From Flammula alnicola (taxonomy: Eukaryota; Basidiomycota; Agaricomycetes; Agaricales; Strophariaceae), in NCBI GenBank assembly GCA_015499995.1, contig JADNRV010000229.1, forward strand, positions 1-64,000: 64,000 nt of DNA, in the 5' to 3' direction. The notes under the pieces were generated by a model, which had not been told where the DNA came from, made no database searches, and worked only from the letters and a program-made list of their open reading frames with translations. Shown here in pieces: positions 1,116 to 28,634 of this stretch (position 1 is its first letter; every line of letters starts with the position of its first letter). The translations under genes and the position numbers were made by a program.

Positions 1116-1290
1116 AGATTCGAACGCCATCTGCATCAGACGACGTTCGAATCTAAGGAGACGACGAACGGCAGTTCGTCGTCTCCTCGTACAAACTGTG
1201 GGGAGAGGTGAGCGTCCGTGTATGTGGATTGAAGTAGAAGTGCAGAACGAGTCGGCATTACCGACTCGTTCCGCTCACATACCTGGTGGA
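1116..1290 (-). other. Hairpin module U2
   Basis: Minus-strand order: donor GTATGT at 1282, stem-loop H1 (1245-1271, 11 perfect pairs, 5-nt loop), acceptor CACAG at 1196 (87-nt intron-like segment), stem-loop H2 (1157-1186, 13 perfect pairs, loop GGCA) and stem-loop H3 (1116-1154, 11 pairs closing a 17-nt loop). H1-H3 are collinear with the stem-loops of U3 and U5, but their stems differ by paired changes. What the module does is unknown; a structured non-coding RNA is an inference. Confidence 0.55.
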
Positions 1291-1474
1291 TCCCCCTCTA
1301 CCAGGGCCTCCCCTTGGTGTCTCTGTCCCCTGTCCATCACCCAGATCCTTCGAGACTGAGCCCACATCCCTCAACGAGGGGGTGGACACGCAACGGGTCG
1401 GCGGGGTCGTTCCTGAGGTAGTGTTTTTGGAGAGCGGAGAAGGCGAGGGAGAGGTGAAGGTGGAGGTGGAGGTG

Positions 1475-1501
1475 GATCAACGACGTTCACTGTCGTTGAT
1501 C
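1475..1501 (-). other. Stem-loop H0b, copy I
   Basis: GATCAACGAC (1475-1484) pairs perfectly with GTCGTTGATC (1492-1501) around a 7-nt loop. The counterpart in copy II (26710-26736) has the same length and loop size with one pair changed to a wobble. Confidence 0.6.
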
Positions 1502-1592
1502 TGTTATCCGGCAGTTTCTGAGAAAGACCGAATATATCGGTTTGGAAACGCAGAGGCTCGCAGAGAGCGGTGACGATCCAGCAAGGCGTTAT

Positions 1593-1620
1593 GGATTTGC
1601 GACATGCATGTCGCAAATCC
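1593..1620. other. 28-bp perfect palindrome H0a, copy I
   Basis: The half-site GGATTTGCGACATG is followed immediately by its exact reverse complement. Copy II has the same core (TTTGCGACATG and complement) as a 24-bp palindrome at 26608-26631. The outermost bases differ between copies but remain self-complementary in each. It could be a dimeric protein-binding site or a cruciform; the sequence alone does not decide. Confidence 0.6.
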
Positions 1621-1811
1621 GTCACAGAAATAAACGAAAGTAACTGAGACTCAGAGAGATCGCGACGCGACGCGTGTAGTCACGTGATTATTTCTGAAAT
1701 CTTTGATTTTTCGCAAAGTCGTTTCAAGCGGGGTTCAAATAGCTCACATGACGTGTTGAACAATGTTCCACATCCCAAATTCAACTTACACGTTCAACGT
1801 TCAACGTTACC

Positions 1812-2558
1812 CCCATTCCCTCCCTGTTCCTTCGCCCATCCTTTGGTGTCTGGTAAGTCTTTACTTTCTTTATATTTGATACTGACAGTTACTGTGCTAG
1901 TTAAATGAGCTAAGCGCCCTGCCTGAGTGATGCAGGCTGGCTCTTTCTCAACATGCGAGTACCTGGAAGAACGGCACCGCTGGTGGCGAATATGGGACAA
2001 AGGTCAAAAGGTAAGAGGAGCATTGTAATTCACATCAGCAGACACAGTACGAGGTTGATGAAACGATGTACCAGCAGGCACGGATAGCATTCTCAGCCAC
2101 CACCACCGCACTCCTCACCGACGTCTCCAGTCCGCTCTCATTCTGGGACGAATGGATGGTGTGCAACTGACTGAAGGTGTCCAGTGCAGGCTTTGGAAAT
2201 GGTAAGCCATCTGTTTCATGGCCTGCAAAGACCGACAACTCACCTCTACTCGTTTCTGGTTGTGTGTTGCCACGTCAGTGTCTTCTTTTCCTCCCACCAC
2301 CACCCCTCTGCCTCTCACCACCCCCGTCGACATCAACATTGACCCCACCTCACCACTGCCTTTTGTCATGACCCCACGGCAATTATGAAGAGCCTCGGGA
2401 TTGCACGTCAATGAGCCACGATGGCTCATCATCGCCACTGCACATCACAAACAGGACTCGACACATGAAGGGCAGCACAGCACGGGGTTGGATACAAAAG
2501 GGGGGACCCAGGACATGGGAGGCCCACACGGTGCATCATAAACAATGACCCTGCAACC
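1812..2558. other. Intergenic, no gene recognised
   Basis: I see no supported gene. The short open frames on either strand have no recognisable motifs, and splice-like signals are not organised into a consistent model. Confidence 0.5.
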
Positions 2559-4455
2559 ATGGCTGACCCCCACCGCATCCCTCACAGAAGCGATGTGCCC
2601 CAGGCACTGAAACTGACGCCAGCGGCAGCATCACATGCGCGATGTGGTGATGGCGGTCTTACTGAGAGCAAGGGCAGAAAAAGGGTAGTGGATGATAGCA
2701 GCTGCGAAAATGCAGAACTCGAACTGTAAGTGTTCTATTCCCTCCAACATATGCATGACCTGGGTATAATTTGGATATAAGTAGTTATGTAATTTACTTA
2801 ATAATCCTTGTACTGTATTGTACTATAATATATATATTGATTCAAAATTACTGGGAATGTGTGCTTAGAGGCAGAGCAAGGGTACCACAGGGCAATATAA
2901 ATGTGAATTGATCCAATCCTAAGATCTATTGCGTTTTCCTAGGACACTCTGAGTAAATTTGACTGAAATCTAGGAAACCATTAGGTTGCCTCTGGTATGT
3001 CCTAGGGCATCCTAGGGACGCCCTAGGTTACCCTAAAGAAAAGTTATCTCCTAACTGACGCCCAAGAGCATATGAGCACCCTGACTGACCTAGCACTCTT
3101 AGGCTGCCCTAGGAGTTCCTTGGGAAAACCTGGGGAAAAAGTGTTTTTCCTGATGGTGCTGTCTTTCTGCGAACAAATGCAGAGCTGGAGATTGAAGCTG
3201 CCATGCTGCGCTCTAGCCCCCCACCAGAACTGTCGACCCTTGGGAAACGACCGCGTCAGGAAGGCGATTCAGCCAACGGTGGAGATACTGAACCCGAGGA
3301 TGATCCTTCGACGACGCCGACACAGTTTCAAGCATTGGCGCCATCAATAAGCAATGTTACCGCGGCGAGTCTACGTTCTGCAACACGCAAGAAGCTGCGG
3401 GCAGAACAACGCGACGAATTGGAAGCGTTCCTGTTGGTGAGTCCCACTGACCGATTGATGTGTTGTTTGACTTGCACGTCTAAACGTCATATGTAGGACT
3501 CGCCCCTTGGCCAGCAAGCAAAGCTCTTGATTTGTCTCTTGTCAGTGGAGAACAAGGTGGACTCGTTCCAGTCGGCGGCACCACCATTTCAGGTCTCTGA
3601 AGAGCTCAAAGTATGTCTCTAAGACTTGACCTGTTGCTCATAGCTTAGCTGTTCATAGACCAACATCAGCAACTATGCGCTTGCTGTTCTCCTTTCTGTC
3701 AAGATCAGCGCCTATAAAGGCAACATTCCTCGTAATCATATCTTGGTCTGTCCTTCACCCTTCCTTGAACTTTGCATTGATCACTTTATATAGAATATTA
3801 TTAGCAAATATCGTTTTGATCTGCCACCTAGAATTGAGCACGACTATGCTAGTTGGGAAAAGATAAAAACCCAAGTCAGTTACGCCCTCACCCAACTTCG
3901 ATCAAAGATCAAGAAAATTGTACGTGACGCACCAGTGCGAGTACCCTGTTTTACTGACAGGGACCCAACGTTTCCTCTCTTCTTGAACAGATTAATCAGA
4001 GCATCATTTCCAACCAGAACATATTTGCCCTTGCCCAGCAGATCGTCAAAGATACGCCGTGTCGTCCCACCGTCCAGCTTTGCGCCCGAGTGGCAATTAT
4101 GGCAAGTGACGTTTTCTTCTCCTGCCACTGCTCCCGTCTGACATATCTTGACAGCGCAAGGTTCACAGAGAATGTGGGGGCTCTGAGAGGTATTGGAACC
4201 TGATTGACGACCGCCTTGAGTTTATTCGCAAGACAGCAGACTCCTCCGTCTCTAAAGTCACAAAGTGGGTTATAATCTCTTAGGTTTCCTCACAATCACT
4301 TACCGATCTGACTCATTAGGGCTTTCAATGCCATCCTCAAGGCTGACTGACAGTTATACGGAGCCGACGAGGACTATGAAATCAAGGATACTTTGCCCGA
4401 TGAATTCCAACAGCGTGTAGATGACGTAGTGTCTGGGAATGTAGTTCCGGAGTGA
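2559..4455 (+). pseudogene. Intron-rich gene of an uncharacterised Agaricomycete-type family, premature stop
   Basis: Exons that keep frame: 3497-3610, 3659-3745, 3794-3919, 3991-4101, 4155-4264 and 4320-4455, preceded by an exon ending at 3436 and a probable first exon 2559-2725. Introns are 48-71 nt with GT-AG ends, except 4102-4154, which is GC-AG (GCAAGT donor). The product is a mid-sized hydrophilic protein without signal peptide or membrane segment; I recall similar multi-exon hypothetical proteins in Agaricomycetes but no assigned function. An in-frame TGA at 4348-4350 lies in an otherwise well-formed last exon that continues to its own stop at 4453-4455, suggesting a recent nonsense change. 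Intron 1 (2726-~3180) is unusually long and AT-rich, probably because of an insertion, and I could not place its acceptor in frame. It could still be expressed in truncated form. Confidence 0.55.
2726..3180 (+). repeat. AT-rich insertion-like intron with CCTAGG cluster
   Basis: This ~450-nt segment replaces what should be a ~55-nt intron. It contains five CCTAGG palindromes (2938, 3001, 3011, 3022, 3108), the last four within about 110 nt, plus a (TA)n run near 2825. Similar words (TGCRGAACTC / TGCAGAGCTGG) border both sides. A small inserted element is likely, but I could not define termini or a target duplication. Confidence 0.35.
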
Positions 4456-5196: not shown

Positions 5197-5199
5197 ACG

Positions 5200-12083: not shown

Positions 12084-12332
12084 TTGGTTCGCTTTTTCGC
12101 TTTTTTTGTCGCTTGCGTCGTCTCGCCTCGAGTCTGTCGTTGATGCTGTTCCTTTCTTGATCGCTGCCCTGCTTCTTGCTTCTTGCTATTCGTCTCTGTG
12201 CGTATTCGTATTCGGTTTGTTGTTCTTCGTCTCGTCTTCCCTCTTTTCCTTCTCAATCTTCGAGGTCCATTTCTGCTTAAGTCCCTGGTCTTGATTGCTT
12301 TTCTTTTCTCGCTTCCGCTACTATGGCTGTAG

Positions 12333-13459: not shown

Positions 13460-14369
13460 TTTTGTATCAGTACCGCTCCGAAGAACTGTACGGAAGGAGG
13501 ACCTTGAGGCCCTAGAATGTTGTAACTGTAGACGCATACCTTTGCATAATCCATTTCTCCACCTGTAGATTGTTAGGGAACTGCATGGGTATCGCTGCGG
13601 GTTACGCGGGTTTTTCGATGTCTAGCACGTAGTATTTGTCAATACGAATTTTTTGCAATTTTTTTTATGCAAAACGGTTGAAAACTGACCAAGTTATGCA
13701 TTTTTTAAGTTTGGTACTCAAAGGTTCGAAATTGATGTCACACGGGCCACGGGTAAGCGTCACGGGTGTCACAAATACCCGTGACGCTTACCCGTGGCCC
13801 GTGTGACATCAATTTCGAACCTTTGAGTACCAAACTTAAAAAATGCATAACTTGGTCAGTTTTCAACCGTTTTGCATAAAAAAAATTGCAAAAAATTCGT
13901 ATTGACAAATACTACGTGCTAGACATCGAAAAACCCGCGTAACCCGCAGCGATACCCGTGCAGTTCCCTATAGATTGTATTTTATATTTCTATGTATGTA
14001 GCAGCTGGCTGTCTTTCGTCGTTAATTTAGTATCGCATTGTTGTAGTGTCAATGTTGTACCTTTTTTTTTTTTGGTCTGCGCTCGAAGACCTACACCGAC
14101 CATCGGTTTCCAGAGTGGCGGTATTGGTAGAACTGTGCCGCAGCGAATCTGGTTTTTTACCATGGAGATGCAAAATAGGACTCTGTAGACACATACAGTA
14201 GTATCACTAGCCATGGTGCTCAGCCAGACTGACCGAGCGCCTCGACAACGGGTCGACGTGTCGACCCAATCCTACGGTTGGACCAACATTGGAAGGAAGG
14301 ATAATGTCGGGACCTCAAGCCAGCACCCGAAGCCATCAGAGCTGAAAAATGCAAGGTCTGGAAGGAAAC
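13270..14369 (+). repeat. Segmental duplication, copy A (MITE-bearing)
   Basis: Without the 397-bp insertion and its 8-bp duplication this is about 695 bp, collinear with 32545-33268. It contains the last two hydrolase exons, the 3' flank and the start of a further unit (ATGTCGGGACCTCAAGCCAG in both copies). Similarity stops abruptly at both ends. Several substitutions and small indels separate the copies, so it is not recent. Confidence 0.75.
13574..13970. mobile_element. 397-bp foldback hAT-like MITE
   Basis: Two arms of 194 bp (13574-13767 and 13777-13970) are near-perfect reverse complements separated by a 9-nt spacer. The ends are TAGGGAACTGC / GCAGTTCCCTA, and the element is flanked by the 8-bp duplication TAGATTGT (13566-13573 and 13971-13978). 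TAGGG ends with 8-bp duplications are typical of hAT elements. The empty site is preserved in the paralogous sequence at 32848-32855, so the insertion and its exact length are proven inside this window. It has no coding capacity and its transcript would fold into one long hairpin. Confidence 0.9.
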
Positions 14370-15383: not shown

Positions 15384-16614
15384 CTGCACAAAAAAAGGAG
15401 GATTCATGTTAGGCGGATCTGGTGGGGTGGTTTGTCACGTACATTGAGCCTCCTTCATCCTCATACATTTCATTACCATTCTGCACTGCTGTTGTTCCTC
15501 TTGCTCTTGATGCATCATTGTGACGACAATGTGGTGGCTTGTGGTTGGCCGCCGATGGTGGGTTGGAGACGTCGTGGGGTTATCTGGACAAAATAGGGTG
15601 TTAGCAGCAGTGGGGTGGGTTGGTTGCCACGTACTTCACGGTGTTTTTTGTTGCCTTGTTCTCCTCCCGCCCTCCTGCGCAGTGTCGTATCATCTCCACA
15701 GCCAGCCGGCTTCCTGGTGGGATGGCGATGACAACCCTTTGTGGCTCATTGTCCCCTTACTCTTGGCCCTATGATGTATCGCGGGTCATGGTGGTGCCTG
15801 GGGTTGCGGTTGGGGGCTGTGGTGTCCACAGCAGGTCGGAGGCGAGACAGTGACCTCGAACAGTGTTCTATGAGAACGGGGGAATGGGGTGTTAGCCATG
15901 TCTAACAGTGTCGTTTGTCACGCACCTAGTCCCTGACCCTCCTATCCGTGCCCTGTCCAGTCTTGGGTGTCATGTTTCGCGGTTATCCGTGCCGTCGTTT
16001 GGCATTTCAGATACCCAGCATATCGTTACCTGGACAAAAAAGGGGGGGTGGGGTTAGCAAAGGCGAGGATGTGGGCAGCCACATACCTCGTGGCATTTCA
16101 GCAGGACATTGTCATATTCTGTGGCTCCCCGTGATGTATAGGCGGCATCTGTGGCAGATGCGGGACAGTCGTCATCTGCTCACGCAAATGAGGGTGAGGT
16201 GGGCGAGGCGGCGGCCTCAAACCTCATTCTACACAAACGAGAGGGGAGTTGAGTTAGAGCTGTCATACCCACATACCCGGCGCGGCGTTGTCACCTGCTT
16301 GAAAAGGGGGTGCGGGGGGGTTAGTGGCGGTTAATGGCAGGGCAGGGGTGGTCTGTGCTGTACCCAGTGGCCGTTGTCTTCATCTTCGCGAGCTTTGGCG
16401 GCATCAGCGTCATGTTGGCAGTAAGGCATGGCATGCGAGTTGGCTGCTCCTGCGGCGTGCTGCTGGCGTTCGGGGGTTGTAGCGCAGTTTTGCAGCCATG
16501 TGGTGGTTTTGTGGGGATTTACGCACCCACGGGGCGAGACAACAGCCTCGAGCCCTGGCATCTGCAACAAAAAGGGGGGGTTAGCGACATCGTGGGGCAC
16601 CGTTCGCCACGTAC
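15384..16614 (-). other. Array of exon/intron modules (six short introns)
   Basis: On the minus strand six intron-like segments with GTRYGT donors, a CTAAC-type branch sequence and C-rich TTTTGTCCAG-like acceptors lie at 16562-16614, 16229-16276, 16030-16086, 15868-15925, 15584-15634 and 15384-15442 (48-59 nt each). Exons after the first, second, fourth and sixth start with related sequence (GGTTCGAGGCCACCGC and variants), so the modules derive from one another by tandem duplication. The reading frame is not maintained through the array, and no protein family is recognised. It looks like a decayed, tandemly amplified gene segment. A related intron/exon junction sits inside the hAT-like element near 25.8 kb, and similar introns occur at 30.2-30.4 kb. 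Confidence 0.45.
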
Positions 16615-17298
16615 CTGGTGGCCTTCGTGGTCATGCACTACCTTGTCCAGTCCTCCTCGCGCTTCTTCAATTGGTCATGCCTGTCATCCAGTGAGGCTCT
16701 CACTGCTGTGGGGCCATGGACCGTGGTCGAGGTAGGTGGTGCGGGCTGTGGCTGGGATGAAGGTGGGACATAGGGTTGCGGAACTTATTCCTCGGCCTAC
16801 ATGTAACTATGTAATTTACAAAGTCCGCAATTTTCGACGGCATGTAATGTAATTTACATCGTAATTTACAAAGCCTGTATTTTCCCACGCAGAAAAACGT
16901 GACACCATCTGCTGGCTGCAGAAATCGTAATCTGATAAGATTACCGTGCTCCAACCTCGAACCACCTCCCAACGTCTCTAGACCCACTCACCGAGCTCGA
17001 AAGTACCTCCCAGTGCTCAGCCTCATCCTGCATAGATGTAACGTTGATGTAACGCGTAACAGGCCAACATAGGCCTTTGCCACAAAATAAATCACGTGAG
17101 AATTTTATGCATAAAATGCAAGGCCGATTTCTGGACTTGCATAAAATAGGTAATTTACATGTAAATTATATGGCACATATAATGTGCAAAAAATCAAATA
17201 TTGTCCGGAAGCCATTTTCGAGAATTTTTTGCGCAAGTTGGACAGAATATTTAAGTTTGTGCACATGTTCTGCATTGTTAATTTATCCACAAGATCCT

Positions 17299-17806
17299 TG
17301 TTACGACTAGCAAGAAACAACGTGATTGCGATGTTGAAGTCAAGCAACCAGTGATTCCAAAGTCGTGCCAAGAGGTGCCTGGATCAGATCGTTCGCACTT
17401 AGAGGCTCAGACGAGCTTAAGTGATCGTGTCTAGAGGCTCGATGAGCTTAGACGTTCATGGCGAGGAGAGAGGCAAGACAAAATAGTCAAGATTCTCAAG
17501 AACTAGCTAAAGTACATCGTTGCGTGTCTACGATATTTATACTAGTTCTGAGTGTGCACAGACCATGATAAAGTGACTCCTTTAGAGTCATTAGAATGGA
17601 GTCAGGAATGTGGAGGAGTCAGAATGGAGAGAGGAGAGTCCTCTCGACGATAATAGTGTCGTCGAGGATGCATAAGTATGGAAACTATAAATAGTCCGGA
17701 ACCGGGAAGGTACTCATACTAAAATAGAAAGTGTCCAGTATAGCTGGCGTACATCTAAGCGCGGGTGAAGATAAGATAAGATAAAAGAAATGAAACGGTC
17801 GTAACA
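17299..17806 (-). repeat. 3' LTR (508 bp)
   Basis: Same length as the 5' LTR with four differences, all transitions; three change CpG to TpG or CpA relative to the 5' LTR. Confidence 0.95.
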
Positions 17807-17809
17807 TTA

Positions 17810-17819
17810 CCCCCTTCTT
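17810..17819 (-). other. Polypurine tract
   Basis: On the element strand AAGAAGGGGG lies three bases upstream of the 3' LTR start. This is the expected primer site for plus-strand DNA synthesis. Confidence 0.75.
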
Positions 17820-17840
17820 ATGTCGAGACTCCGTATCGAC

Positions 17841-18830
17841 TTATACTTGGACTGGTTCACCGGCGGCATTGAAGTAGACTTCGATGCTGTCGCTGTCGCT
17901 GCTGGAACCCCATCGTGGGCAGTCATTGGTGGTGTGCCCCGGGGCATGAACATGGCAGCTTCGGCAGACATAGCGAGCACAGTCTTTCTTGACGTGGTGT
18001 GGTGAGTTGCAGGCGTAGCAGCGGTGGCGAGCATTGTACGTGGGGCGTTGTCGGCCTGTGATGGGTGATTGTGGAGCTGTGTGATATGCCGAGGACCTGG
18101 TGCATCCACTTCAGTTGGTAGAGGAGGAACTAGAAGGGTCTGACCTTTCGACGATGATGGTAGGGACGAACTGGACGCGAGGGGTCCTTCGAAGGGTTCT
18201 CGGTCCAGCAGGTGTATTCCCTCGAGTTGGGACAAACGTCCTTCGTAGTTCGAACATGGCTTGGACCTGGTGTTGTAGCCCATGCCATATTGCATTATCG
18301 AAGGTGGTATGCGCGTATGCCTGTAATCGGAGCAATTCTGCACGAAGAGAAGTGATGGTCTGGTGGGTGTTGTGGAGGATTTCCACGTCATAAGACAGGA
18401 GGGTGTGGTTTCTGACCAAACGGCGGACTTGCTCGTAGTCTTGTTCAGTGACGATCCTGTTGCGGTACTCCTCGTAGGTGATGTTGGTCTCCGTTGGAGT
18501 GGCCCAGTTGGACGTGTCCGGCACGGGCGCGGTTCCCCAGCCGAAGTTGTCGGAGTTTGGGATGGGTTGAGGGATCTCGCCATCTTCGACTCCAGCTTCA
18601 GCGGAGTTAGGACCAGGCCCCTCGGGGCGATCAGCCGCATCGGCGTTGCTATGAACTCTGCTGAATATGACCTCTATGGCTGCTCGGCGAGATTCTGGGG
18701 TGCTTGTGGTGTTCGCAGTGGTGTGGTTGCCGTCGATCGGCTCTTGGGTGGAGTTGAGTGGGGTTTCTTCGAGGGAAAGGTCCTCGGTGTTGGCAATGAC
18801 CTGATCGATAATGTTAGAGGTGGTAGACAT
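17841..18830 (-). pseudogene. Extra ORF between Pol and 3' LTR with two zinc knuckles, internal stop
   Basis: A 330-codon frame (ATG at 18830, TAA at 17841-17843) interrupted by one in-frame TGA at 18111-18113. The N-terminal third is acidic and low-complexity; the middle (E-Q-D-Y-E-Q-V-R-R-L...) looks helical and coiled-coil-like; the C-terminus has a C-x2-C-x4-H-x4-C knuckle followed by a C-x2-C-x6-H-x4-C one. This is outside the standard gag-pol set. It is not an envelope protein: there is no signal peptide or membrane segment. A nucleic-acid-binding accessory protein is a reasonable inference; the function is unknown. Confidence 0.65.
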
Positions 18831-19469
18831 GTTTGAGTAGAATGGGATGGGGAGTTATAGTACAGAAGATACAATTTATATACTAAAGGTCTCCTGGTCT
18901 GTGCGAGAGGAGGGCGGTGTCGTTTTGACTGGTTCTGAGTCGTTTTACTGGGTGTGTTTCCGGAACGACTTGACTAAGTCTTCGATTGACTTGTTGATTT
19001 TTCGGAGCAGTTGGAGTGTCGGTTCCGACTGACTCTTCTTGATAGGTCGGCGACCGAAAATGAGTGGGGTCGGGTCCGGCGAGGCTGTGGAGAACCTCGA
19101 AGAAGGTTCAGGTGAGTCAGTGATGACTCAGAGTGTTAAGAGTCGGGGTTGTTCGTGCGAAGTCTGTAGTTTTGTAGGAATTCCTTTGTCGTTAAGGATT
19201 TCCTCCAGTTCTTGTCGTCTGTATTCCATTCTCCTTGCGATTCTCATAAATTGTCCTCTTCTCTCCTCGCATCTCTTAATACGTCATCAGTTTCTCGTCG
19301 AATGGGCGTCCATCCTTCTTTGAATAAGGGTGGGCATCGTGTCGAATATGGTCTGGGTGGCGGTGACGATTGGGCTCGATGAACAGAAGGTATTCGAAAA
19401 TAGAACATTGGGATTGACATGTCGTATGAAGCTGTGGCTGTGTTTGATTGTGCGGTGGGCTGTGAGCGT

Positions 19470-20009
19470 CTAAGTTTGACGCTTCCGGTAGGGCGGGAGG
19501 TGGACTCGTTGTTTGTAAGCCGCGAGGATTTCCTGTGCGTTTGTAAGCCTGCTCTCATTTTCCCAATTGGCTTCTTCGACCGAATAGCCTTTCCATTTGA
19601 TGAGGAACTGGTATCGGCCGTTTCGGAGTTTCTTGTGGTTCAAGATTGCGTCGACTTCATATTCTTGTTCTCCGTCGATGAGATCCGGGGAGGCTGTGTG
19701 AAATTCTTCCCATGAATCTCATTTTCCACGTATGGCATCAAGAGGACAGCGTGGAAGACGTCGTGAATCTTCCAGTGTTTCGGGAGTTGCAGTCGATAGG
19801 TTAGGGGTCCCAGAACGTCTTTGATCAAGAATGGTCCTTCCCGTTTAGGTGCCATCTTTTTGTTGTAGCGCGTCTTGAGATTCCGTGAATCCAACCAGAC
19901 TCTTTGTCCTTTCTTGAAGGGGACAAATCTTGATTGGCGACGTTCGGCTATTCTTGCTCGGGCTAGTTCATGTGCCGCGAGGCTTCTTCTCGATCTTTGA
20001 TTAACTGCT
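19470..20009 (-). pseudogene. Integrase C-terminal domain and chromodomain, frame-broken
   Basis: The Pol product continues in other frames: a GPY/F-like integrase C-terminal module (…G-P-F-L-I-K-D-V-L-G-P…, 19700-19900) and then a chromodomain (…Y-Q-F-L-I-K-W-K-G-Y…W-E…, about 19500-19680) ending at a TAG at 19470-19472. Frame changes near 20035, 19985 and 19695 separate the parts. Chromodomains at the integrase end direct insertion to modified chromatin in this group. Whether the breaks are mutations or sequence errors cannot be told here. Confidence 0.7.
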
Positions 20010-23000
20010 TCATTCGGTCTTCAACGGCGGGAAACTTGTGTTTTCGAATGAAGTGGGAACGGAGATCGGTGAATACCCCATTTGTAGCTCAAACGGGGTT
20101 CTCTGTCTGTCCGCATGTCGTCGATCATTGTGCGTGAATTCCAGAGTACTGATGGAGTCTAGCCAAGTGTCTGGGTTTGATGAGCAATATATGGAGATAT
20201 ACGCTTCTATTTCTTGGTTTAGACGTTCCGTGGCGCCATCAGACTGCGGGTGATAGGCGGTGGTCAATTTGGATTTGATGCCTAGAAGCTTCAGAAGCTC
20301 TCGGAAGGCTTTTGCCGCAAATTGAGGGCCACGGTCAGACCTGAGGCTGTCAGGTAGTCCGAATCTTCTGTATAGATTGTCCAAAAGTAGGCATCCGGTC
20401 TCTTCTTGCGTGACCGAAGTGGAGCAAGGAATGGTAATCACCCCCCCTGTAAGACCATGGTCGACCACGACCAGTACAGCATCTTTTCCGTTGATCTCGG
20501 GCAATCCAGTGATAAAATCCATTGTTGGATCGGCAAAGGGTCGTTTCGACTGAGCGGTTTCCTGTGCAATTAATGCCGGGTGTGACGGATTTCTGTTGAT
20601 CTTGAATTGTTGACAGATTCCGCATCCTTTTACGTAGGATTTCACGAAAGTTCGCATGCCTGGCCACCAGTAATGTTCCCGGATAGCATTATATGTTTCC
20701 AGTTCGCCCGGGTGTCCAGCTGTCAGAGGTTCGTGATATTTTTCCACGATTTCGCGTCGCAGTGATTGACTATTAGGGATATAGTTTTTCCCTTTATAGA
20801 ACAATAATCGGTTTCCGTCGTGTTCGGCAGTGGTCCAGTCCTCTAGTCCTTTTCGTAGGTGTCGCAGTCCATCCTCCAGCAGTATTCTGAGCACTTCTGC
20901 TGCTTCAGTGTCGAGGTTTGAAGAATTGGCAATCTTTTCTTGCAATTCGAGGTCTATAAGGTTTACGAAGAGTCCTTCGGGCAAGAGTGTCATGTCGTCA
21001 TTATCTGTATCATCATCTGGGATGTGGTCTGGTCGTCGGGATAGTGCGTCGGATTGGATCATTTTACTTCCTGCTTGGTGGACCAGTTTGACGTCATATT
21101 CTGACAGGAACAGGGACCAGCGTGCTTGTCGCCTGTTTAGTTTCTGGGCAGAACGGAAGTAGGTTAGGTTCTTGTGGTCAGACAGGATGGTCATTGTGAA
21201 TGGTGATCCTTGGATGTAGTGTCGCCATTCTTGCATTGCTCGGATGATCGCCAGAAGTTCTCGGTCATAGATTTCATAGTTTCGTTCTGCCGGTGAGAAG
21301 GTCTTCGAGATGAATGCGCATGGGTGCCTGGCGCCGTTTGTGTCCAATTGTGAGAGTACTGCACCTGACGCGTATTTTGAAGCATCACATTCTATCTGGA
21401 AAGGTTTGGTCGTATCTGGCATCAGGAGTACGGGTTCTTCAGTGAAGCGCCTCTTCAGGGTGTCAAAGGCCTCTTGTGCAGCCTCCGTCCATTCGAAGGG
21501 CTGGTCTTTCTTTAATAACTCGTTCATGGAACGGGCTATTTCTGAATAGGCTCTAATGAATTTCCGATAGAAGTTTCCAAATCCAAGGAATGATCTGACT
21601 TGTTTGAGCGTTTTCGGTACTGGCCAGTCCGCGATGCCTTTGAGTTTGGCAGAGTCCATTCTAATTTGTCCTTCTTCAATGATCATGCCTAGGTATTCCA
21701 TGGTAGGCAGTTCAAAGAAGCACTTCTCTGGTTTCAAAAAGAGGTCGTTCTCTCTGAGTCGTTGTAAGACTCGTCTGGTGTACCCTTTGAGCTGTTCTTT
21801 GCTTTTCAAAAAAAGCAGGATGTCGTCCATGTAGATAATTATCCAGTGTTCGACTTGGGTGTCAGTGGTCATGTCCTTGAACATGTCGTCCATCATGGAT
21901 TGGAACGTCGCCGGTGAATTGCACATCCCGAAGAACATAACGGTGGGTTCAAACAGTCCTTTGTTTGTCTTAAACGCCGCTTTCCATTGGTCTCCATCCC
22001 GGATCCGAATATTGTTGTAACCCCAACGCACGTCTAGCTTAGTGAAGAATTTGGCCCCTTTGAGCTTGTCCATAAGCTCAGGGATGAGGGGTAGCGGATA
22101 TGCGTTTTTTATCGTCCAGTCATTTAGGAATCGATAGTCTTGACAGGGTCTCAGGGATCCATCCTTCTTCGAGGTAAAAAAGAAGGGTGATGCCATGGGC
22201 GAGGTCGAAGGTCGGATATAGCCTTTGTCGAGGTTTTCCTTCAGAAATTCATCCAGCTTTACTTCTTCGACTGGTGACAAGGCATAGGTTTTGAATGATT
22301 TTGGCTCAAAGCCTTCCTTCATCTCGATCTTGTGATCCCAAGGTCGAGATTCAGGGAAGCGAGCCGCCGCCTGTTTGTCGAAGATGTCCAAGTATTTGTG
22401 GTATTCTGCCGGTATCATTTCTTCCAGGGTTTTCTCTTCCTTGGGCTTTTCTTGGGCGAAGGCAAAGGTCTGAGCTTGGGTCGTTTTGGCATTGATCCAA
22501 GTCTCTTTCGCTTCTTTGGTAAGTTCGCCGTTGATAAAAGAAATTACTAGGTCGTCCATGGTGTCTGTTTCCAGGTGGGGTCCTTCCGGGGTTTTTTCAA
22601 CAGTCCTCTTCAATACGGGAGTAAACTCCTCGCACGTGGGGCTCCTGTCAAGTGTTGAACCCGTGGATAGTTCATCAAGATGTAGGTCCATTTCGTCCAA
22701 CGAGGGAGTGATACTCCCTTGTGGTTCCTTTGCGGTCTTGGTCTTGAGGAGTCTGATGAGTACGTTCCTGAACTTTCCGAGGGATTTCCGAAGTCTCTCC
22801 CTCCAGGTTAGGGTCCCAAGTTTCCAGTTGATGTTTGGGTTTCGTTTCTGGAGCCATGGGAAACCCAGAATAATCTTCTGCTTTCCGAGGCCGGTGACCA
22901 TAAGTTTGGTCGGGTCTGTTCTTCCGTTGATGGTAAGGTCAATGACGACATAGTATGATATCATCCCTTCCTTATTAGGTGTCCCATCGACGTTCTTGGC

Positions 23001-23243
23001 TTTGATTGGTTTCGGGAGCCGGTGTAGGTCGAGTCCAAGGGATTGTGCGAATTGCTGGTGGATGAACTGTCCGCCAGCCCCAGAGTCTAGGAGAGCGGTG
23101 GTTCCAACGATTTTTCTACCAGTCTGATTTTCACACGAGAGAGAACATGGCAAATGCATAGTTTGATTCTCGATCTCGGCTACTAATACAGAGTGAATAG
23201 AAAGGTAGGGAGAGACTGACGTTGGGCGGCGTCTCCCTATCAA
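20010..23243 (-). CDS. pol: Retrotransposon Pol (protease, RT, RNase H, integrase), 3' truncated by frameshift
   Basis: 1,077 codons from the overlap with gag. Domains in order: aspartic protease with D-S-G-A at residues 53-56; reverse transcriptase with Y-M-D-D at 471-474; RNase H (F-Q-I-E-C-D-A-S region, about 600-720); integrase with an H-H-C-C zinc site (about 825-870) and the D, D, E catalytic residues (T-M-D-F-I-T, S-D-R-G-P-Q-F, G-A-T-E-R-L). There is no ATG at the 5' end; the frame is -1 to gag, so expression should be by ribosomal slippage at the T run before the gag stop, giving a Gag-Pol fusion. The ORF ends early at 20010 because of an indel near 20035, before the integrase C-terminal domain, so this copy probably cannot make a full integrase. 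Confidence 0.9.
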   Translation of the reverse strand: MIGRRRPTSVSPYLSIHSVLVAEIENQTMHLPCSLSCENQTGRKIVGTTALLDSGAGGQFIHQQFAQSLGLDLHRLPKPIKAKNVDGTPNKEGMISYYVVIDLTINGRTDPTKLMVTGLGKQKIILGFPWLQKRNPNINWKLGTLTWRERLRKSLGKFRNVLIRLLKTKTAKEPQGSITPSLDEMDLHLDELSTGSTLDRSPTCEEFTPVLKRTVEKTPEGPHLETDTMDDLVISFINGELTKEAKETWINAKTTQAQTFAFAQEKPKEEKTLEEMIPAEYHKYLDIFDKQAAARFPESRPWDHKIEMKEGFEPKSFKTYALSPVEEVKLDEFLKENLDKGYIRPSTSPMASPFFFTSKKDGSLRPCQDYRFLNDWTIKNAYPLPLIPELMDKLKGAKFFTKLDVRWGYNNIRIRDGDQWKAAFKTNKGLFEPTVMFFGMCNSPATFQSMMDDMFKDMTTDTQVEHWIIIYMDDILLFLKSKEQLKGYTRRVLQRLRENDLFLKPEKCFFELPTMEYLGMIIEEGQIRMDSAKLKGIADWPVPKTLKQVRSFLGFGNFYRKFIRAYSEIARSMNELLKKDQPFEWTEAAQEAFDTLKRRFTEEPVLLMPDTTKPFQIECDASKYASGAVLSQLDTNGARHPCAFISKTFSPAERNYEIYDRELLAIIRAMQEWRHYIQGSPFTMTILSDHKNLTYFRSAQKLNRRQARWSLFLSEYDVKLVHQAGSKMIQSDALSRRPDHIPDDDTDNDDMTLLPEGLFVNLIDLELQEKIANSSNLDTEAAEVLRILLEDGLRHLRKGLEDWTTAEHDGNRLLFYKGKNYIPNSQSLRREIVEKYHEPLTAGHPGELETYNAIREHYWWPGMRTFVKSYVKGCGICQQFKINRNPSHPALIAQETAQSKRPFADPTMDFITGLPEINGKDAVLVVVDHGLTGGVITIPCSTSVTQEETGCLLLDNLYRRFGLPDSLRSDRGPQFAAKAFRELLKLLGIKSKLTTAYHPQSDGATERLNQEIEAYISIYCSSNPDTWLDSISTLEFTHNDRRHADRQRTPFELQMGYSPISVPTSFENTSFPPLKTE

Positions 23244-24199
23244 AAATCCTCGTTCAAATCTTCCAAACAGGCAGTCTTCTCCTCTAGATCCAATTCCTCG
23301 ATGAGCGAACGGATGTGTGCACTGGTTTGTTTTCCAGTGAGTTTCTTCTTCGTCGGTTCATATCGTCGTTGATAGTTTGTCGTGTTTCGTCTTTCTTTCT
23401 TCTTCGGGCAGTCACGCGCCATGTGGCCGGGCTTCTTGCAGAAGAAGCATGATCCTGTCCTAAGGAGTTTGCTTCGTTCTTCAGTCGTCATCACATCGAC
23501 GTCCATGGCGTCGGGGTCGCGTGGTTTATATGAGAATGGGCGTCTCGCAGGTCTGGTTTCAGTTTTCAGTTTCTGATACCCTGCGTCCTGTCTGGCATAT
23601 CTTCGTTCGATCGTGTTGGAGATCTTCATGTTCGTTTCTCTGTCTTTGGCTTTGTCGTACCAGCCTTGGAGCATGGTAGGTCGGGTCTCGAGTCGCATGA
23701 CTTCCCTTAACAGCTCTGTTCGAAGGGACTTTCGGAATAGGTCAATCAGGATTGACGGGTCGGAGATCCCGGTCTTCTTTACCAGGATCTTGAAGTTCGT
23801 GATGTGTTCTTCTAAGGGCGCCTTCCCTTGTCGGATCGCGTATAACTGTTCGAGGGAGTTGCCCTTCAGGTCGGTGATCTTGTAGTCTTTGTCAAGTTGG
23901 TCAATAAAGGCGTCCCAGGTTCCAAGGTTCAATGACGCTTGGACCGCTGGAACGTTTCCCGCTGCGGGTGCAGCCGGAGTGTAGTGGAAGTCATAGAACT
24001 CTTCGGCCCAGTTTCCTGCGGCTTCTCCCCACATGAAGGAGAGAACGAAGACGATCTTTTTATCATCAGTGTCGTAGACGGCGGAATTGATCTTTAGGTA
24101 GAGCATGACCGTCTTCTTCCAAGAGGCATATTTTTCAATATCCCCATCAAAGTCCTGGGGTCGGTTCAAGTTTATTTCTTTCAGGGTAGGATTAGCCAT
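23240..24199 (-). CDS. gag: Retrotransposon Gag with CCHC zinc knuckle
   Basis: 319 residues. The first ~200 form the helical capsid-like Gag domain (W-K-K-T-V...F-V-L-S-F-M-W-G-E-A-A-G-N-W). A basic linker is followed by one zinc knuckle, C-x2-C-x4-H-x4-C, at residues 251-264, which binds the RNA genome during particle assembly. The stop codon TGA is preceded by a run of five T, and the pol frame lies at -1 and overlaps it. The methionine at 24199 is the first in this frame, but homologous-looking coding sequence continues upstream, so the natural start may be earlier. Confidence 0.85.
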   Translation of the reverse strand: MANPTLKEINLNRPQDFDGDIEKYASWKKTVMLYLKINSAVYDTDDKKIVFVLSFMWGEAAGNWAEEFYDFHYTPAAPAAGNVPAVQASLNLGTWDAFIDQLDKDYKITDLKGNSLEQLYAIRQGKAPLEEHITNFKILVKKTGISDPSILIDLFRKSLRTELLREVMRLETRPTMLQGWYDKAKDRETNMKISNTIERRYARQDAGYQKLKTETRPARRPFSYKPRDPDAMDVDVMTTEERSKLLRTGSCFFCKKPGHMARDCPKKKERRNTTNYQRRYEPTKKKLTGKQTSAHIRSLIEELDLEEKTACLEDLNEDF

Positions 24200-24700
24200 G
24201 GGTGGAGCGGTCTGTTGACCTGGGGGGTTCAGGGGAAATGGAGGTGGAGGTGGAGGTGGACCTTGCGGTTGTCTTGAAGGCTGTCACCCTGGTGGTGGGG
24301 AGAGTTCTTCTGAAGAACTAGGAGGGTCAGGAGGAGGTTCTGAAGGCGCGTGGTGGTCGTGGAGACCTTCGTCTTCGAGATCCGAGAAGGAGGGAAGTTG
24401 GACGGGAGTTCTGGATCTGGAAGAGGTGAAAAAGCTAGCGGATAGTGGATCTGCTGCTTCTTCTAGGGTTTCGGTGGGCTCGCGGGATGGGACGCTGGGG
24501 GTAGATGGTTCAGGTTCAGGAGTGGCTGCGACAAGGAGTTGTTCTCGGGTGGCTGATCGAGTTACTCGTGACCTAGCTTGCGAAGCTACTGTCGGTCGAG
24601 TTACTGAGGGTTTCGGAGGCGTTGTGCAGGCTTGGACTCCGAGGAGTCCTACTGCGACGAGTGTCGAGGTTCGAGGGATAGTCGACCACTAGATAGTGGT
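24200..24700 (-). pseudogene. Frame-broken leader of gag
   Basis: Upstream of the gag methionine the minus strand is open in two successive frames: an acidic, proline- and serine-rich segment that ends at a TGA near 24280, then a proline-rich stretch that runs in frame into the gag ORF. One small indel near 24280 would account for the break. This suggests that gag originally had a longer disordered N-terminal region; it is an inference from frame continuity only. Confidence 0.4.
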
Positions 24701-24710
24701 GGAAAGGAGT

Positions 24711-24725
24711 AGTAGCTAGTTCTTT
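24711..24725 (-). other. Primer-binding site, complementary to the element's own 5' end
   Basis: Directly after the 5' LTR the element reads AAAGAACTAGCTACT. Twelve bases, AAGAACTAGCTA, are the reverse complement of the predicted start of its own mRNA. No match to a familiar tRNA 3' end (ending in TGG complement) is visible at this position. This is the arrangement described for Tf1 and sushi elements, in which the 5' end of the mRNA itself primes reverse transcription. Confidence 0.65.
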
Positions 24726-25233
24726 TGTTACGACTAGCAAGAAACAACGTGATTGCGACGTTGAAGTCAAGCAACCAGTGATTCCAAAGTCGTGCCAAGA
24801 GGTGCCTGGATCAGATCGTTCGCACTTAGAGGCTCAGACGAGCTTAAGTGATCGTGTCTAGAGGCTCGACGAGCTTAGACGTTCGTGGCGAGGAGAGAGG
24901 CAAGACAAAATAGTCAAGATTCTCAAGAACTAGCTAAAGTACATCGTTGCGTGTCTACGATATTTATACTAGTTCTGAGTGTGCACAGACCATGATAAAG
25001 TGACTCCTTTAGAGTCATTAGAATGGAGTCAGGAATGTGGAGGAGTCAGAATGGAGAGAGGAGAGTCCTCTCGACGATAATGGTGTCGTCGAGGATGCAT
25101 AAGTATGGAAACTATAAATAGTCCGGAACCGGGAAGGTACTCATACTAAAATAGAAAGTGTCCAGTATAGCTGGCGTACATCTAAGCGCGGGTGAAGATA
25201 AGATAAGATAAAAGAAATGAAACGGTCGTAACA
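24726..25233 (-). repeat. 5' LTR (508 bp)
   Basis: First LTR in the element's reading direction. It contains TATAAATA (24961-24968, minus strand), which should position transcription start near 24936, dividing the LTR into U3 (~297 nt), R and U5. Confidence 0.95.
24925..24968 (-). promoter_or_regulatory. LTR core promoter and predicted transcript start
   Basis: On the minus strand TATAAATA begins at 24968 and 30-33 nt downstream comes TTTAGCTAGTTCTT. The usual TATA-to-start spacing puts the mRNA 5' end at about 24936. The twelve bases from there (TAGCTAGTTCTT, 24936-24925) are the exact complement of the sequence next to the LTR at 24713-24724, as expected for a self-priming element. Confidence 0.6.
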
Positions 25234-25479
25234 ATCCTCATTTTGTCACAAGGCCAATACTTGCCAATTGTCGCAGGCTGATGTCTAACAAAATATTTCT
25301 GCGCAGGTTGGATATGCAAAATACTTGTTACACATGTTAGGTTGTAGAAAAGAAATCTTCCACATGTTATATTAAAAAAATTTCCGCATGTAAAGTGGGT
25401 TACAATTAGAATTGCACAAGCAGAAATTCCAACCCACACGTGGGTGTTTTTGATCACCCGCGGCCATACCTGCATGGCC

Positions 25480-25910
25480 ATCATTTTACCTGTCTGGAAA
25501 GGGAATTGCGCCACACGTCTATTTCAAATCACCCTCACATACTGGTCAGCCGAGCGCATCATCGAGCGGTCCACCACCCACCAGAGCTGCAAATGAAGCT
25601 GCGAATGAGCCCAAGACGTGTCCTCCAAGCCCACAAGCATTGTGACGCACCTTGATGCACCTATTGGGCCTCCGTTTGCTCTTGGTGACCGAAACTCCAT
25701 CCTACAGCATCCCTGGTTCGCCATGACAGTCATAGACATTGTCAATGCCCTCACCGTTGTCACTGTGTTAAATGGGGGTAGGTGATGATCTGATGCGGGT
25801 TTCGAACCTGCGCCATCATTTTCTGTTCAAGGAGGAGCGTTAGCAGCATCGGAGGCAGAAGCTACCTACATACCAGGTAGGCCTTGGGATACCTGAGCAT
25901 TAACATTAAT
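25480..25910 (-). other. Captured exon/intron-like sequence inside the hAT-like element
   Basis: The minus strand shows a GTATGTAGG donor and a CCTTGAACAG acceptor with CTAAC in between, followed by exon-like sequence containing GGTTCGAAACC. This resembles the junctions of the array at 15.4-16.6 kb. The neighbouring plus-strand sequence has coding-like composition. It is best read as host sequence carried by the element; the donor gene is not identified. Confidence 0.35.
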
Positions 25911-26040
25911 TACGCCGGGCCGCCAGACTAAATTGAGACCAATGTGCCCAGAGTGACGACAACGACTTACATCCTTCATCATGTGTGTTCAAATTTGAAC
26001 TTGTGTTTATTGAAATGAACCTAGACAGACATTAAACAGA

Positions 26041-26160
26041 CATGCGGAAAAATCTTACAAACCTTAAATGAGCTTGTGTAAAACTTTCTACCCATCAAAC
26101 ATGCGGAAAAATCTTAGAAGCTTAAATGAACTAGCGTAAAACTTTCTACACATCAAACAT
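26041..26160. repeat. 59-bp tandem repeat, two copies
   Basis: Units start CATGCGGAAAAATCTTA at 26041 and 26100 and share the TAAAACTTTCTACNCATCAA end. A third partial unit begins at about 26158. It lies in the subterminal part of the hAT-like element. Confidence 0.75.
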
Positions 26161-26989
26161 GTGGAGAATATTTGCATCAAGATGAACTTGCATTTGATAA
26201 GGAAATTGACTTATGCAGTATGATCATAACTTGCATAATAAGCAAAGAGATACTGTTCACTTGCAGAAATATTTGCATTCACTGGAGATACCTGTGAAAA
26301 CATGTCGTTTACTTGCGAGAAAAACATGCCTTGATTTTTTGCACATTATATGTGCCATAAAATTACATTGTAACTTACACTTGGGAACTTATTCGGAGTT
26401 TTTTCCGCAACCCTAGTGGGACAATAATGGAGGAAGTCGAACGTTGAAACGTTGAACCAACATGTGACTGTATATTTAGAACTCCGATTGAAATGACTTT
26501 GCATGATTTTGAAACTTGATATTCAAGATCGGTGCAGTCATGTGACCAGACGCGTCAGAGCGCGTCGCATCTCAGTCCAACGTGAGTTCGTTTATTCTCT
26601 GTGACACGTTTGCGACATGCATGTCGCAAACTCATAACACATCGTGACGGAGGCCCTCGGTGGTCACGTTTTCTGACCACTCATGTCGTTCTCGGAAACT
26701 GCCGGATAAGATCAATGACGTTGAATGTCGTTGATCTTTATCTTTAACCAACACCATCACCCTCTCTCGCCTCTCCCTCCCTTTCATCTCTCCCAAGAAC
26801 ACTCAAAAAGGTATGTAAGTTATCTTTTCATTGTTATATTTGTATTTCTAATGTGCTTTTTGACTCTTACAAGTACTCTACCGTGCCTACGAACAAGGCC
26901 GACCCGTCGCCTGCCCCTCCTCTCGTTGAGAGATGTGGGCCGACATTTAGAAGGCTTAGGATGGGCGGAGACGGTGCCGAGAGAACAAG

Positions 26990-27173
26990 GGGAGACCCTC
27001 GAAGAGAGAGACCCGTGAGGTGTGTCACAGAACGGGTCTTACGACCCGTTCTGTTATTCATCCCTCCGTAAAATGCTACTTACCACCCAAACCAAAGGCT
27101 ACACACGGAGACGACGACGTGTTTAACGTCGTCGTCTCCTCCTCAAACGTGGTCTGATTTCCCAGACCATGTT
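26990..27173 (+). other. Hairpin module U3
   Basis: Conserved lead-in GGGGAGACCCTCGAAGAG, donor GTGTGT at 27020, stem-loop H1 (27027-27054, 12 perfect pairs, loop TTAC), acceptor at 27097 (78-nt intron-like), stem-loop H2 (27107-27139, 14 perfect pairs, 5-nt loop) and stem-loop H3 (27146-27173, 11 pairs with one wobble, 6-nt loop). Order and spacing equal those of U2 and U5. Confidence 0.6.
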
Positions 27174-27179
27174 CGAGTT

Positions 27180-27480
27180 CGTTTGGACACCCACGACTGC
27201 CCACCACCGTCAACGGCCACCACCCTCGCCGCCATCGACGCCGCTCCGCTAGGACCCAACGACGAGCCAGCGACCGCGCCGGCGAGCGAGGCGATGACGC
27301 CACGATGCCGCTGGTGCAACGACGACGCCATGATGCCACAGGTGCATCGACGACGATGGCCCAGTGACGCAGCAACGCCGGGTGCAACGATGACAACGCC
27401 CCGACGCTGCAACAGCGCGTGCATCGACAACGCCGCAACGGCGGGTGCATCAACGATGACGCCACAACGCCGCAGATACA
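27180..27480. repeat. CGACGACGCC minisatellite-like tract
   Basis: Degenerate repetition of short CAACGACGACGCCA / GGTGCAACGA words following module U3. It corresponds to the tract at 655-1000 in copy I. Confidence 0.55.
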
Positions 27481-27589
27481 ACGACGACTGTACCGCACCA
27501 ACGAACGAGCCGACCCCGTCGCATGCTCCTCCGCTCTTCGAGGGAGATGGGCTCGCTCTCACAGGCTTTGGATGGGAGGAGAAGGAACA

Positions 27590-27753
27590 GGGAAATCAAA
27601 GGGAGTCCCTGGCAAGGGAAACCCACGAGGTACGTCGGAGCGTGTCATATACACGACACGTTCTGCGAATCTTCCTTTTCACTGCCCCACCACTCACCAC
27701 CCTTCAACCTACAGGCTGAAAGAGGAGACGACGCCGCTGCCGTCGTCTCCTCT
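27590..27753 (+). other. Hairpin module U4
   Basis: Donor GTACGT at 27630, a shorter stem-loop H1 (27638-27663, nine pairs including one wobble), acceptor CCTACAG ending at 27714 (85-nt intron-like) and stem-loop H2 (27721-27753, 13 perfect pairs, 7-nt loop). No clear H3 remains. Confidence 0.5.
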
Positions 27754-28439
27754 TACATCCATGTTTGTCCTGGCTGCACCCACCAGCTACCCCGTTCTAA
27801 CAACTACACCATCACGACCGCCCCCCCGTTACAAGGACGACGGCTGGCGAGGATGATACTTCTCCCCTCACCCAACTCCAACCGCTCTGACATCTCAAAC
27901 TTAGATGCCAGTCCTGACTTATCGGCCACATCCATCCTCCAGCCCGCCGCCCACCGCCATGCGCCACCATCGCTCTCACTGGCTCGCCTATTGACAGAGC
28001 CGAGCATAGCTCAAGCAGCGTCTGCGAGCACGGCACGGACAGTGACCACGAACGGCGATGGTGAATAGCGACGGCGAACAGCAACAAATAGCGAGCATGG
28101 GTACAATGGGCATCGCAGATTGTCAGCGGCTGGTCCAGATCCACGCCCGATTGTACACAGCACCCCACCCCGCCCTCTTCTCTCGCCGTCTCTCAAGCAT
28201 GGATGCTCACGGTCCAGCTGACCCCGCAAACCGTACGACGCCGTCATCCACATCGCTCATCTCGGCAACTGCATGGCATGCTCGTGGTGAGTTATTTTTC
28301 GTTCTTATATTTGTATTTCTAACTTTTTTCCCTTACAGGTACTCTACCATGTAAACGAACAAAGCTGACCTATCGCCTGCTCCTCTCGATGTGGCCTGAT
28401 GTTAAGTAGGCTTAGGATGGGCAGAGAGGGTGCTGAGAG

Positions 28440-28634
28440 AACAAGGGGAGACCCTCGAAGAGGGAGACCCCAAGGTGCATCACGGAACGGGTCCTACGAC
28501 TCGTTCCGTTATTCATCTCTCCGTAACATGCTACTTACCGCCAACCCACAGGCTATACAAGGAGACGGTGACGTTAGCCACGTCGTCGTCATCCCTCCTT
28601 GACTTCGAACATCGTCTGTACGATGTTCGAAGTC
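28440..28634 (+). other. Hairpin module U5
   Basis: Lead-in GGGGAGACCCTCGAAGAG as in U3, donor GTGCAT at 28475, stem-loop H1 (28482-28509, 12 pairs with one wobble, loop CTAC), acceptor CCCACAG ending at 28551 (77-nt intron-like), a bulged H2 (28559-28600) and a 15-pair perfect stem-loop H3 (28601-28634, loop CTGT). Compared with U3 and U2, the stems of H1 and H3 differ by paired substitutions. Confidence 0.6.

What the first reader, a model, noticed from the sequence alone, without database searches (positions are those of the whole stretch)
1116..28634. A repeat family with hairpins at fixed positions whose stems co-vary between copies
Modules U2 (1116-1290, minus), U3 (26990-27173), U5 (28440-28634), with weaker U1, U4 and U6, share the order donor site, H1 stem-loop, acceptor, H2, H3. 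The stems are conserved as stems, not as sequence. In H1 one pair is G-C in U3, G.U in U5 and A-U in U2; another is A-U in U3 and G-C in U5. In H3 two pairs switch (A-U to G-C and C-G to U-A) between U5 and U2. Reading frames are not conserved. Paired changes through a wobble intermediate are the signature of selected structure. I know no described fungal repeat of this build. It could be a structured non-coding RNA gene, a small-RNA precursor, or hairpins kept by a replication or silencing mechanism.
Basis: partly seen in the sequence, partly recalled or inferred. Interest (0 to 1): 0.9.

Follow-up and report, generated by a model that had tools for sequence, protein, structure and literature searches.

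The report
Flipping hairpins inside a fungal transposon
Short hairpins inside a likely fungal jumping gene sit with their loops in either orientation in different copies; template switching during DNA replication likely flips them and keeps their arms matched, which would mimic the paired changes usually read as proof of a working RNA.

Summary
In detail: the modules exist, their stems exceed chance and paired changes exceed a shuffle control. The modules lie inside a TIR transposon with ends CATCAGG...CCTGATG and 2-bp target duplications at 10 of 11 sites, the published marks of PlavakaB; no transposase was found in the two complete copies scanned. New here: the hairpins occur in both orientations. 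In seven hairpin kinds the loop of some copies is the exact reverse complement of that in others while the flanks stay (CAGTA/TACTG, GTTTA/TAAAC, ATTCAAC/GTTGAAT, CAAA/TTTG and more). Flips separate two arms of a 99.8% identical inverted pair, two copies at one insertion site, and members of a near-identical group. This is the inverted-loop footprint published for replication template switching, which also copies one arm from the other; so covariation here does not prove selected RNA structure. A.C mismatches are not clearly rarer than G.T (12 vs 19 collapsed, p=0.28; 14 vs 28 raw, p=0.044). Against: B-type H1 shows no flips and a long-lived G.U, and one of three close comparisons shows no hairpin excess. 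A selected RNA is not excluded; no transcript data exist.

The parts
3133..3155 (-). terminal inverted repeat (left end) of transposon copy A, CATCAGGAAAAACACTTTTTCCC; the copy runs leftwards past the contig start
   Evidence: only match in the window with up to 3 mismatches, none in 100 shuffles
1..3155 (-). transposon copy A, cut by the start of contig C145
   Evidence: 2782-3156 is 93% identical to the left end of the complete copy C168
1593..1620 (-). H0, perfect palindrome with core TTTGCGACATGCATGTCGCAAA
1475..1501 (-). Hb hairpin, copy A
1107..1318 (-). module U2 (A-type), H1-H2-H3
1245..1271 (-). H1 hairpin of U2, loop TAATG on the element strand
1156..1187 (-). H2 hairpin of U2, loop TGCC on the element strand
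1116..1154 (-). H3 hairpin of U2, loop ATG, with one T.G and one G.T
418..562 (-). degenerate module U1
   Evidence: E 1e-8
16281..16770 (+). outer piece of transposon copy B, separated from its inner piece by about 9.6 kb that include a Ty3/gypsy element
   Evidence: 90% identity to C68:98976-99478, which is contiguous there with the next piece
17298..25024 (-). Ty3/gypsy LTR retrotransposon lying between the two pieces of copy B (LTRs 17298-17597 and 24725-25024, 99% identical)
26426..28640 (+). inner part of transposon copy B with modules U3, U4, U5
26608..26631 (+). H0 palindrome, copy B
26710..26736 (+). Hb hairpin, copy B, loop GTTGAAT (reverse complement of ATTCAAC in C68 and C25)
26984..27183 (+). 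module U3 (B-type)
27027..27054 (+). H1 hairpin of U3, loop TTAC, inside a GT...AG intron-like stretch
27107..27139 (+). H2 hairpin of U3, loop GTTTA (TAAAC in C68)
27142..27177 (+). H3 hairpin of U3, with one A.C and one G.T
27596..27762 (+). module U4 with H4 hairpin at 27720-27754
28440..28638 (+). module U5; H1 at 28482-28509, H3 at 28601-28634

Best explanation
The modules belong to a DNA transposon with PlavakaB-type ends whose internal hairpins occur in both orientations in different copies, likely because template switching during DNA replication inverts them in place and copies one arm from the other. Shown: the ends, the target duplications, the loops found as exact reverse complements with flanks unchanged, and flipped loops between near-identical copies. 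Inferred: when the fork meets a short perfect inverted repeat, the polymerase switches to the other strand or the folded nascent strand, copies through the hairpin and switches back. If the copied stretch spans the loop the hairpin is inverted; if it spans only an arm a mismatch is repaired in one step, giving a paired change. Copies are then spread by transposition. Stems would thus stay matched while drifting in sequence, without any selected RNA. Also inferred: that the copies are moved in trans by a Plavaka transposase encoded elsewhere in the genome.
For: Transposon: 91 TIR matches, 46 and 45 by strand, controls 0 and 1; 66 of the 91 form 33 inward-facing pairs 3.6-5.4 kb apart; 2-bp target duplications at 10 of 11 distinct sites; Plavaka transposase matches elsewhere in the genome (148, counted piece by piece). 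Flips: 11 reverse-complement loop pairs over five hairpin kinds in 172 copy reads, against 2 reverse-only and 2 complement-only pairs, plus ATATA/TATAT 17 and 8 of 26 and TTTA/TAAA 6 and 2 of 10. H1: CAGTA 6, TACTG 12 of 30. Near-identical copies: C68 arms, 10 differences in 6.15 kb, the only two transversions together making one H2 flip; C357 and C297 with the same 20-bp flanks, H2 AGCA/TGCT; C315 against C168 and C176, H1 TACTG/CAGTA. All eight orientation combinations of H1, H2 and H3 occur among the 15 elements scored for all three (loops one base from a known one were assigned its side). Hairpins change more than other sequence in these comparisons: 8 events per 645 bp against 17 per 7752, p=4e-4 pooled.
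Against: B-type H1 shows no inverted loop in the 13 readable modules and carries a G.U in 11 of 20 sequences with letters there, so correction is not universal. G.T exceeds A.C before collapsing (28 vs 14, p=0.044). Singly, the three close comparisons give p=0.035, 0.051 and 1.0. The Hb difference in C168 (GTTGAAC/GTTCAAC) could be one G-to-C change. The flipped form of H3B is seen only in the two C68 arms, that of H2B in them and in the C494 row. Several H2 loop pairs need only two base changes. Why so many hairpins exist is not explained by the mechanism. Gene conversion between copies could spread a flipped loop. The replication step was not observed.
Confidence: 0.74

Rival explanations
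1. The hairpins are a selected RNA structure in a transposon transcript (exon and intron hairpins of a non-coding RNA); stems are kept by purifying selection through compensatory changes.
For: Covariation above shuffles; promoter-like upstream part and GT...AG stretches in the same order in several copies; G.T outnumbers A.C 28 to 14; B-type H1 keeps a G.U in 11 sequences.
Against: Loops are found inverted in seven hairpin kinds, so loop sequence and orientation are not kept. A.C mismatches are common (12 against 19 G.T after collapsing). Hairpins also lie upstream of the intron-like part (H0, Hb) and about 70 bp from the right end (H5). No Rfam family matches the window.
Confidence: 0.13
2. 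A site-specific enzyme (transposase or host recombinase) or cruciform resolution turns the hairpins round as a DNA-level reaction, and the hairpins are its target sites.
For: Several hairpins flip separately; many arms are CGAC/GTCG-rich; copies at one insertion site differ by a flip.
Against: By eye, arms of the different hairpins share no common longer site, and loops differ in length and sequence; loop and arm deletions occur at the same hairpins, as expected of replication slippage.
Confidence: 0.08
3. The inverted loops are errors of sequencing or assembly.
For: Perfect hairpins are hard to sequence (general knowledge); C68 is a 12.5-kb near-perfect palindrome in the assembly.
Against: The same two orientations recur in tens of separate places with intact flanks; the C68 arms also differ by ordinary transitions and one-base gaps elsewhere.
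Confidence: 0.05

Closest known systems
Replication template-switch mutations in RNA hairpins (Monttinen and Loytynoja 2022, PMC8794818; abstract, passages and Discussion seen)
   Same: Predicts multiple paired stem changes and 'fully inverted loops' as footprints; reports 69 loop-inversion clusters in rRNA, enriched over simulation.
   Different: There inversions are called very rare and lie in rRNA genes; here both orientations coexist across tens of copies of a transposon, and some differ between near-identical copies.
Small hairpin-associated inversions of plastid spacers, e.g. trnH-psbA (PMC2903610, passages seen; Kelchner and Wendel 1996 seen only in its reference list, content recalled)
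   Same: The stretch between short inverted repeats is inverted recurrently, even within species.
   Different: Plastid loci with a 25-27 bp loop in the figure legend seen; here 3-7 bp loops in several hairpins of one element on contigs with transposons and genes.
PlavakaB DNA transposons of Agaricomycotina (PMC12730594, passages seen)
   Same: Termini CATCA..TGATG and 2-3 bp target duplications.
   Different: No transposase found in the two complete copies scanned; the passages seen mention no hairpin cluster.

Membership tests
PlavakaB DNA transposon | termini 5'-CATCA..TGATG-3' | tested here: met
   criterion from PMC12730594
PlavakaB DNA transposon | 2 or 3 bp target site duplication | tested here: met
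   2 bp at 10 of 11 distinct sites; C168 does not show it; in C335 the first base of the end is changed; the C68 copies were left out because their inner flanks lie in a palindrome
PlavakaB DNA transposon | Plavaka transposase domain PF18759 encoded | tested here: inconclusive
   not found in 10 ORFs scanned (of 44 listed) of two complete copies; present elsewhere in the genome, but no copy with these exact ends was linked to it; longer TIR pairs (7.7 kb and more) were not read
Template-switch footprint | loop inverted with flanks and stem unchanged | tested here: met
Template-switch footprint | several paired stem changes | tested here: met
   10 of 26 pairs changed on both sides in 24 modules; whether they arose in one step was not tested
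Selected structured RNA | significant covariation | tested here: met
   against shuffles and slides; not specific, because the rival mechanism predicts it too; R-scape not available
Selected structured RNA | G.U tolerated but A.C avoided on the transcribed strand | tested here: inconclusive
   28 vs 14 raw, p=0.044; 19 vs 12 collapsed, p=0.28
Selected structured RNA | transcript or small RNAs | not testable with these tools
   no reads
Known Rfam family | match at gathering score | tested here: not met
   0 matches in the window

The most novel reading that the evidence does not exclude
The hairpin cluster is a DNA-level device of the transposon: perfect inverted repeats that are flipped and re-perfected so often that they persist as structures without any selected sequence, and that may serve the element (for example as replication or transposase structures). 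It would be a natural flip-rate reporter inside a eukaryotic nucleus and the clearest case of mutation alone writing 'covariation'.
Probability: 0.25. Interest if true: 0.8.

Novelty: new variant of a known kind. Interest (0 to 1): 0.58.

Why it matters
Paired stem changes are the standard proof of functional RNA structure. Here a mobile element offers dozens of hairpin copies in which the process that would produce such changes leaves a visible signature, the inverted loop. That gives a way to measure how often template switching inverts and repairs hairpins in a nuclear genome (a rough estimate here: one flip per hairpin for every 1-2% of substitution), and a caution for covariation-based RNA discovery in repeats. 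In seven searches of the held library no listed title or abstract start reported recurrent hairpin inversion in a nuclear transposon; several of these searches matched hundreds to thousands of papers of which only 10-15 were listed, and most subscription papers are not held.

Tried and rejected
Rejected: a free-standing hairpin repeat or RNA gene as the unit, because the conserved region ends at transposon ends in C25, C68, C140 and C335. Rejected: local inverted duplication as the source of stem identity, since the same hairpins sit at tens of places; the one large inverted duplication (C68) was used only as a near-identical pair. Rejected: strand-specific RNA selection as proven, since the G.T excess is not significant on collapsing.

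Led nowhere: linking a Plavaka transposase to these exact ends (on C297 and C357 the listed match lies about 3 kb outside the element). Alignment A1 mis-registers H2 between A- and B-types, so H2 was left out of the covariation count. One search stopped on a script error and was redone. One search had an off-by-one in the right flank; one search corrects it. One search miscounted two of the three close comparisons (1 instead of 2, and 9 instead of 8, events outside hairpins) and one search used the latter; one search corrects both, the pooled figures being unchanged.

Rows dropped: near-duplicate modules (nine names) and for (24 of 51 modules used: E 2e-23 or better, near-duplicates removed), 2 of 13 H2B reads with unclear arms; of the 77 H3 reads (most hairpins read on both strands) the 40 with the element-strand anchor were kept; of the 57 Hb reads those whose arms or side were unclear were dropped, 28 copies used in all, some, 35 of the 39 mismatched hairpins, the 4 with other mismatch types only left out.

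Full report
1. What is there. A stem scan of the window gave 12 hairpins at score 11 or more, 8 of them in the modules or just outside them; three shuffles gave 1, 0 and 0. A 351-base piece of the unit matches at least 44 places in the 74.4-Mb, 861-contig genome that holds the window.

2. The carrier. Comparing long stretches of several loci shows common ends: CATCAGGAAAAAC.CTTTT.CCC at one end and its inverted counterpart at the other. The pattern occurs 91 times in the genome (46 and 45 by strand; reversed-pattern controls 0 and 1); 66 of these form 33 inward-facing pairs 3.6 to 5.4 kb apart, 6 further pairs are 7.7 to 25.5 kb apart. Two-base target duplications flank 10 of 11 distinct insertions (eight sites, of which C168 fails; C25, C140 and C335 read). 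PMC12730594 (passages) gives these features for PlavakaB transposons: termini CATCA..TGATG, 2 or 3 bp duplications. Plavaka transposase matches are present elsewhere in this genome (148, counted piece by piece). Among 10 ORFs scanned of 44 listed for two complete copies none has a transposase domain, so these copies are probably non-autonomous; one carries a stretch similar to ATP synthase. In the window, copy A has its left end at 3133-3155 on the minus strand and is cut by the contig start; the two pieces of copy B are about 9.6 kb apart, with a Ty3/gypsy element between them.

3. The hairpins. A complete copy (C168) has, in order, H0 (a perfect palindrome), Ha, Hb, then an intron-like stretch with H1, then H2 and H3, and about 70 bp from its right end H5. 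A second, B-type version of the H1-H2-H3 module is found in U3, U5 and others.

4. Covariation. On 24 non-redundant modules, H1 and H3 show 91.7% paired cells, 10 of 26 pairs with changes on both sides (5.2 expected from shuffles, 1 of 500 as high) and much lower values when slid.

5. The loops are inverted. Reading the copies of each hairpin in the orientation fixed by its flank gave: H1 CAGTA 6, TACTG 12, CAGCA 8, others 4, of 30; H2 GGCA 8/TGCC 9, AGCA 6/TGCT 5, CGCC 5/GGCG 2, CAAC 5/GTTG 3, CAAA 6/TTTG 2, others 12, of 63; H3 ATG 18/CAT 13, ACG 1/CGT 2, others 6, of 40; H2B GTTTA 6/TAAAC 2, others 3, of 11; Hb ATTCAAC 3/GTTGAAT 5, GTTCAAC 4/GTTGAAC 5, others 11, of 28. Over these five kinds 11 loop pairs are exact reverse complements, against 2 pairs related by reversal only and 2 by complement only, one of the latter (CAAC/GTTG) also being a reverse complement. 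H5 adds ATATA 17/TATAT 8, other 1, of 26 (here complement and reverse complement coincide) and H3B adds TTTA 6/TAAA 2, others 2, of 10. The TAAAC and TAAA reads are the two C68 arms; the C494 row also reads TAAAC. B-type H1 shows no flip in 13 readable modules. Among 20 elements tabulated, 15 could be scored for H1, H2 and H3 and all eight combinations occur, so the hairpins appear to flip one by one.

6. Flips between near-identical copies. The two arms of the C68 inverted pair differ at 10 places in 6.15 kb; the only transversions are the two that turn H2's loop GGCG into CGCC. C357 and C297 have the same 20-bp flanks in opposite orientation and, before the minisatellite, differ by seven transitions, one other transversion and the two changes that turn AGCA into TGCT in H2; beyond it they differ by an 89-base gap and a few bases. 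Five copies that align at about 100% differ in a 640-bp stretch by an H1 flip in C315, a possible Hb flip in C168 (a single G/C difference, so ambiguous), a three-base H1 loop deletion in C190 and C578, two single changes in hairpins of C176 and two changes at one base elsewhere. Pooled, hairpins have 8 events in 645 bp and other sequence 17 in 7752 bp (ratio 5.7, p=4e-4); singly p=0.035, 0.051 and 1.0. A rough flip rate per hairpin is 74 times the per-base substitution rate (interval 20-189), or 55 times (11-162) without the ambiguous Hb case.

7. RNA or DNA? In 87 distinct hairpins with 1229 stem pairs there are 28 G.T, 14 A.C and 4 other mismatches (p=0.044); with mismatches of the same context counted once, 19 and 12 (p=0.28). 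Strong selection for an RNA stem on this strand would be expected to purge A.C; it does not clearly do so. Loop sequence is not kept even in orientation. Against this reading, B-type H1 shows no flips and keeps a G.U in 11 of 20 sequences. A selected RNA is therefore less likely, not excluded.

8. Mechanism. PMC8794818 (abstract, passages and Discussion) states that template switching around a hairpin can produce several paired changes, stem extension, or fully inverted loops, and reports 69 loop-inversion clusters in rRNA. That is the pattern here. Small inversions between short inverted repeats are also known from plastid spacers (PMC2903610, passages). The replication step itself is inferred. 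Hairpin and loop deletions in C25, C68, C140, C190 and C578 fit the same kind of polymerase error.

9. Open. Why the element carries so many hairpins, whether it is transcribed, and what moves it.

Noticed in passing
window 13574-13970: 397-bp fold-back element, arms 194 nt and 99% complementary with a 9-nt spacer, ends TAGGGAACTG...CAGTTCCCTA, 8-bp target duplication TAGATTGT; the related sequence near 32848-32855 is the empty site. Looks like a hAT-type MITE.
   Followed up: partly
window 17150-17197 and 26331-26378: 48-nt inverted repeat (88% complementary) just outside the two ends of the Ty3/gypsy element; perhaps the ends of another element in which the retrotransposon sits, between the two pieces of copy B.
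   Followed up: no
window 32252-32333: Two neighbouring perfect hairpins (AAAGACCGGTC.. and AAAAGACCGGAC..) of another kind, possibly a second hairpin family.
   Followed up: no
window 27288-27489, 28679-28880 and 592-715: Degenerate minisatellite of about 28-31 bp (CGACGACGCCACGACGCTGCAGGTGCAA-like) next to the hairpin modules; in the same kind of sequence C297 lacks 89 bases of C357.
   Followed up: no
L052:2326-3543: The C357 copy of the transposon holds a stretch similar to ATP synthase alpha/beta (E 6.7e-18): perhaps a captured gene fragment.
   Followed up: no
L031-L033 (C68:89937-102413): Near-perfect 6.15-kb inverted pair (99.84%) ending at the transposon ends.
   Followed up: partly
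window 39214-39669, 45324-47585, 52858-53673, 55971-57140: hAT transposase C-terminal remnant; NACHT/TPR protein with 135-bp-spaced repeats 82-85% alike; lysophospholipase; WD40 protein.
   Followed up: no
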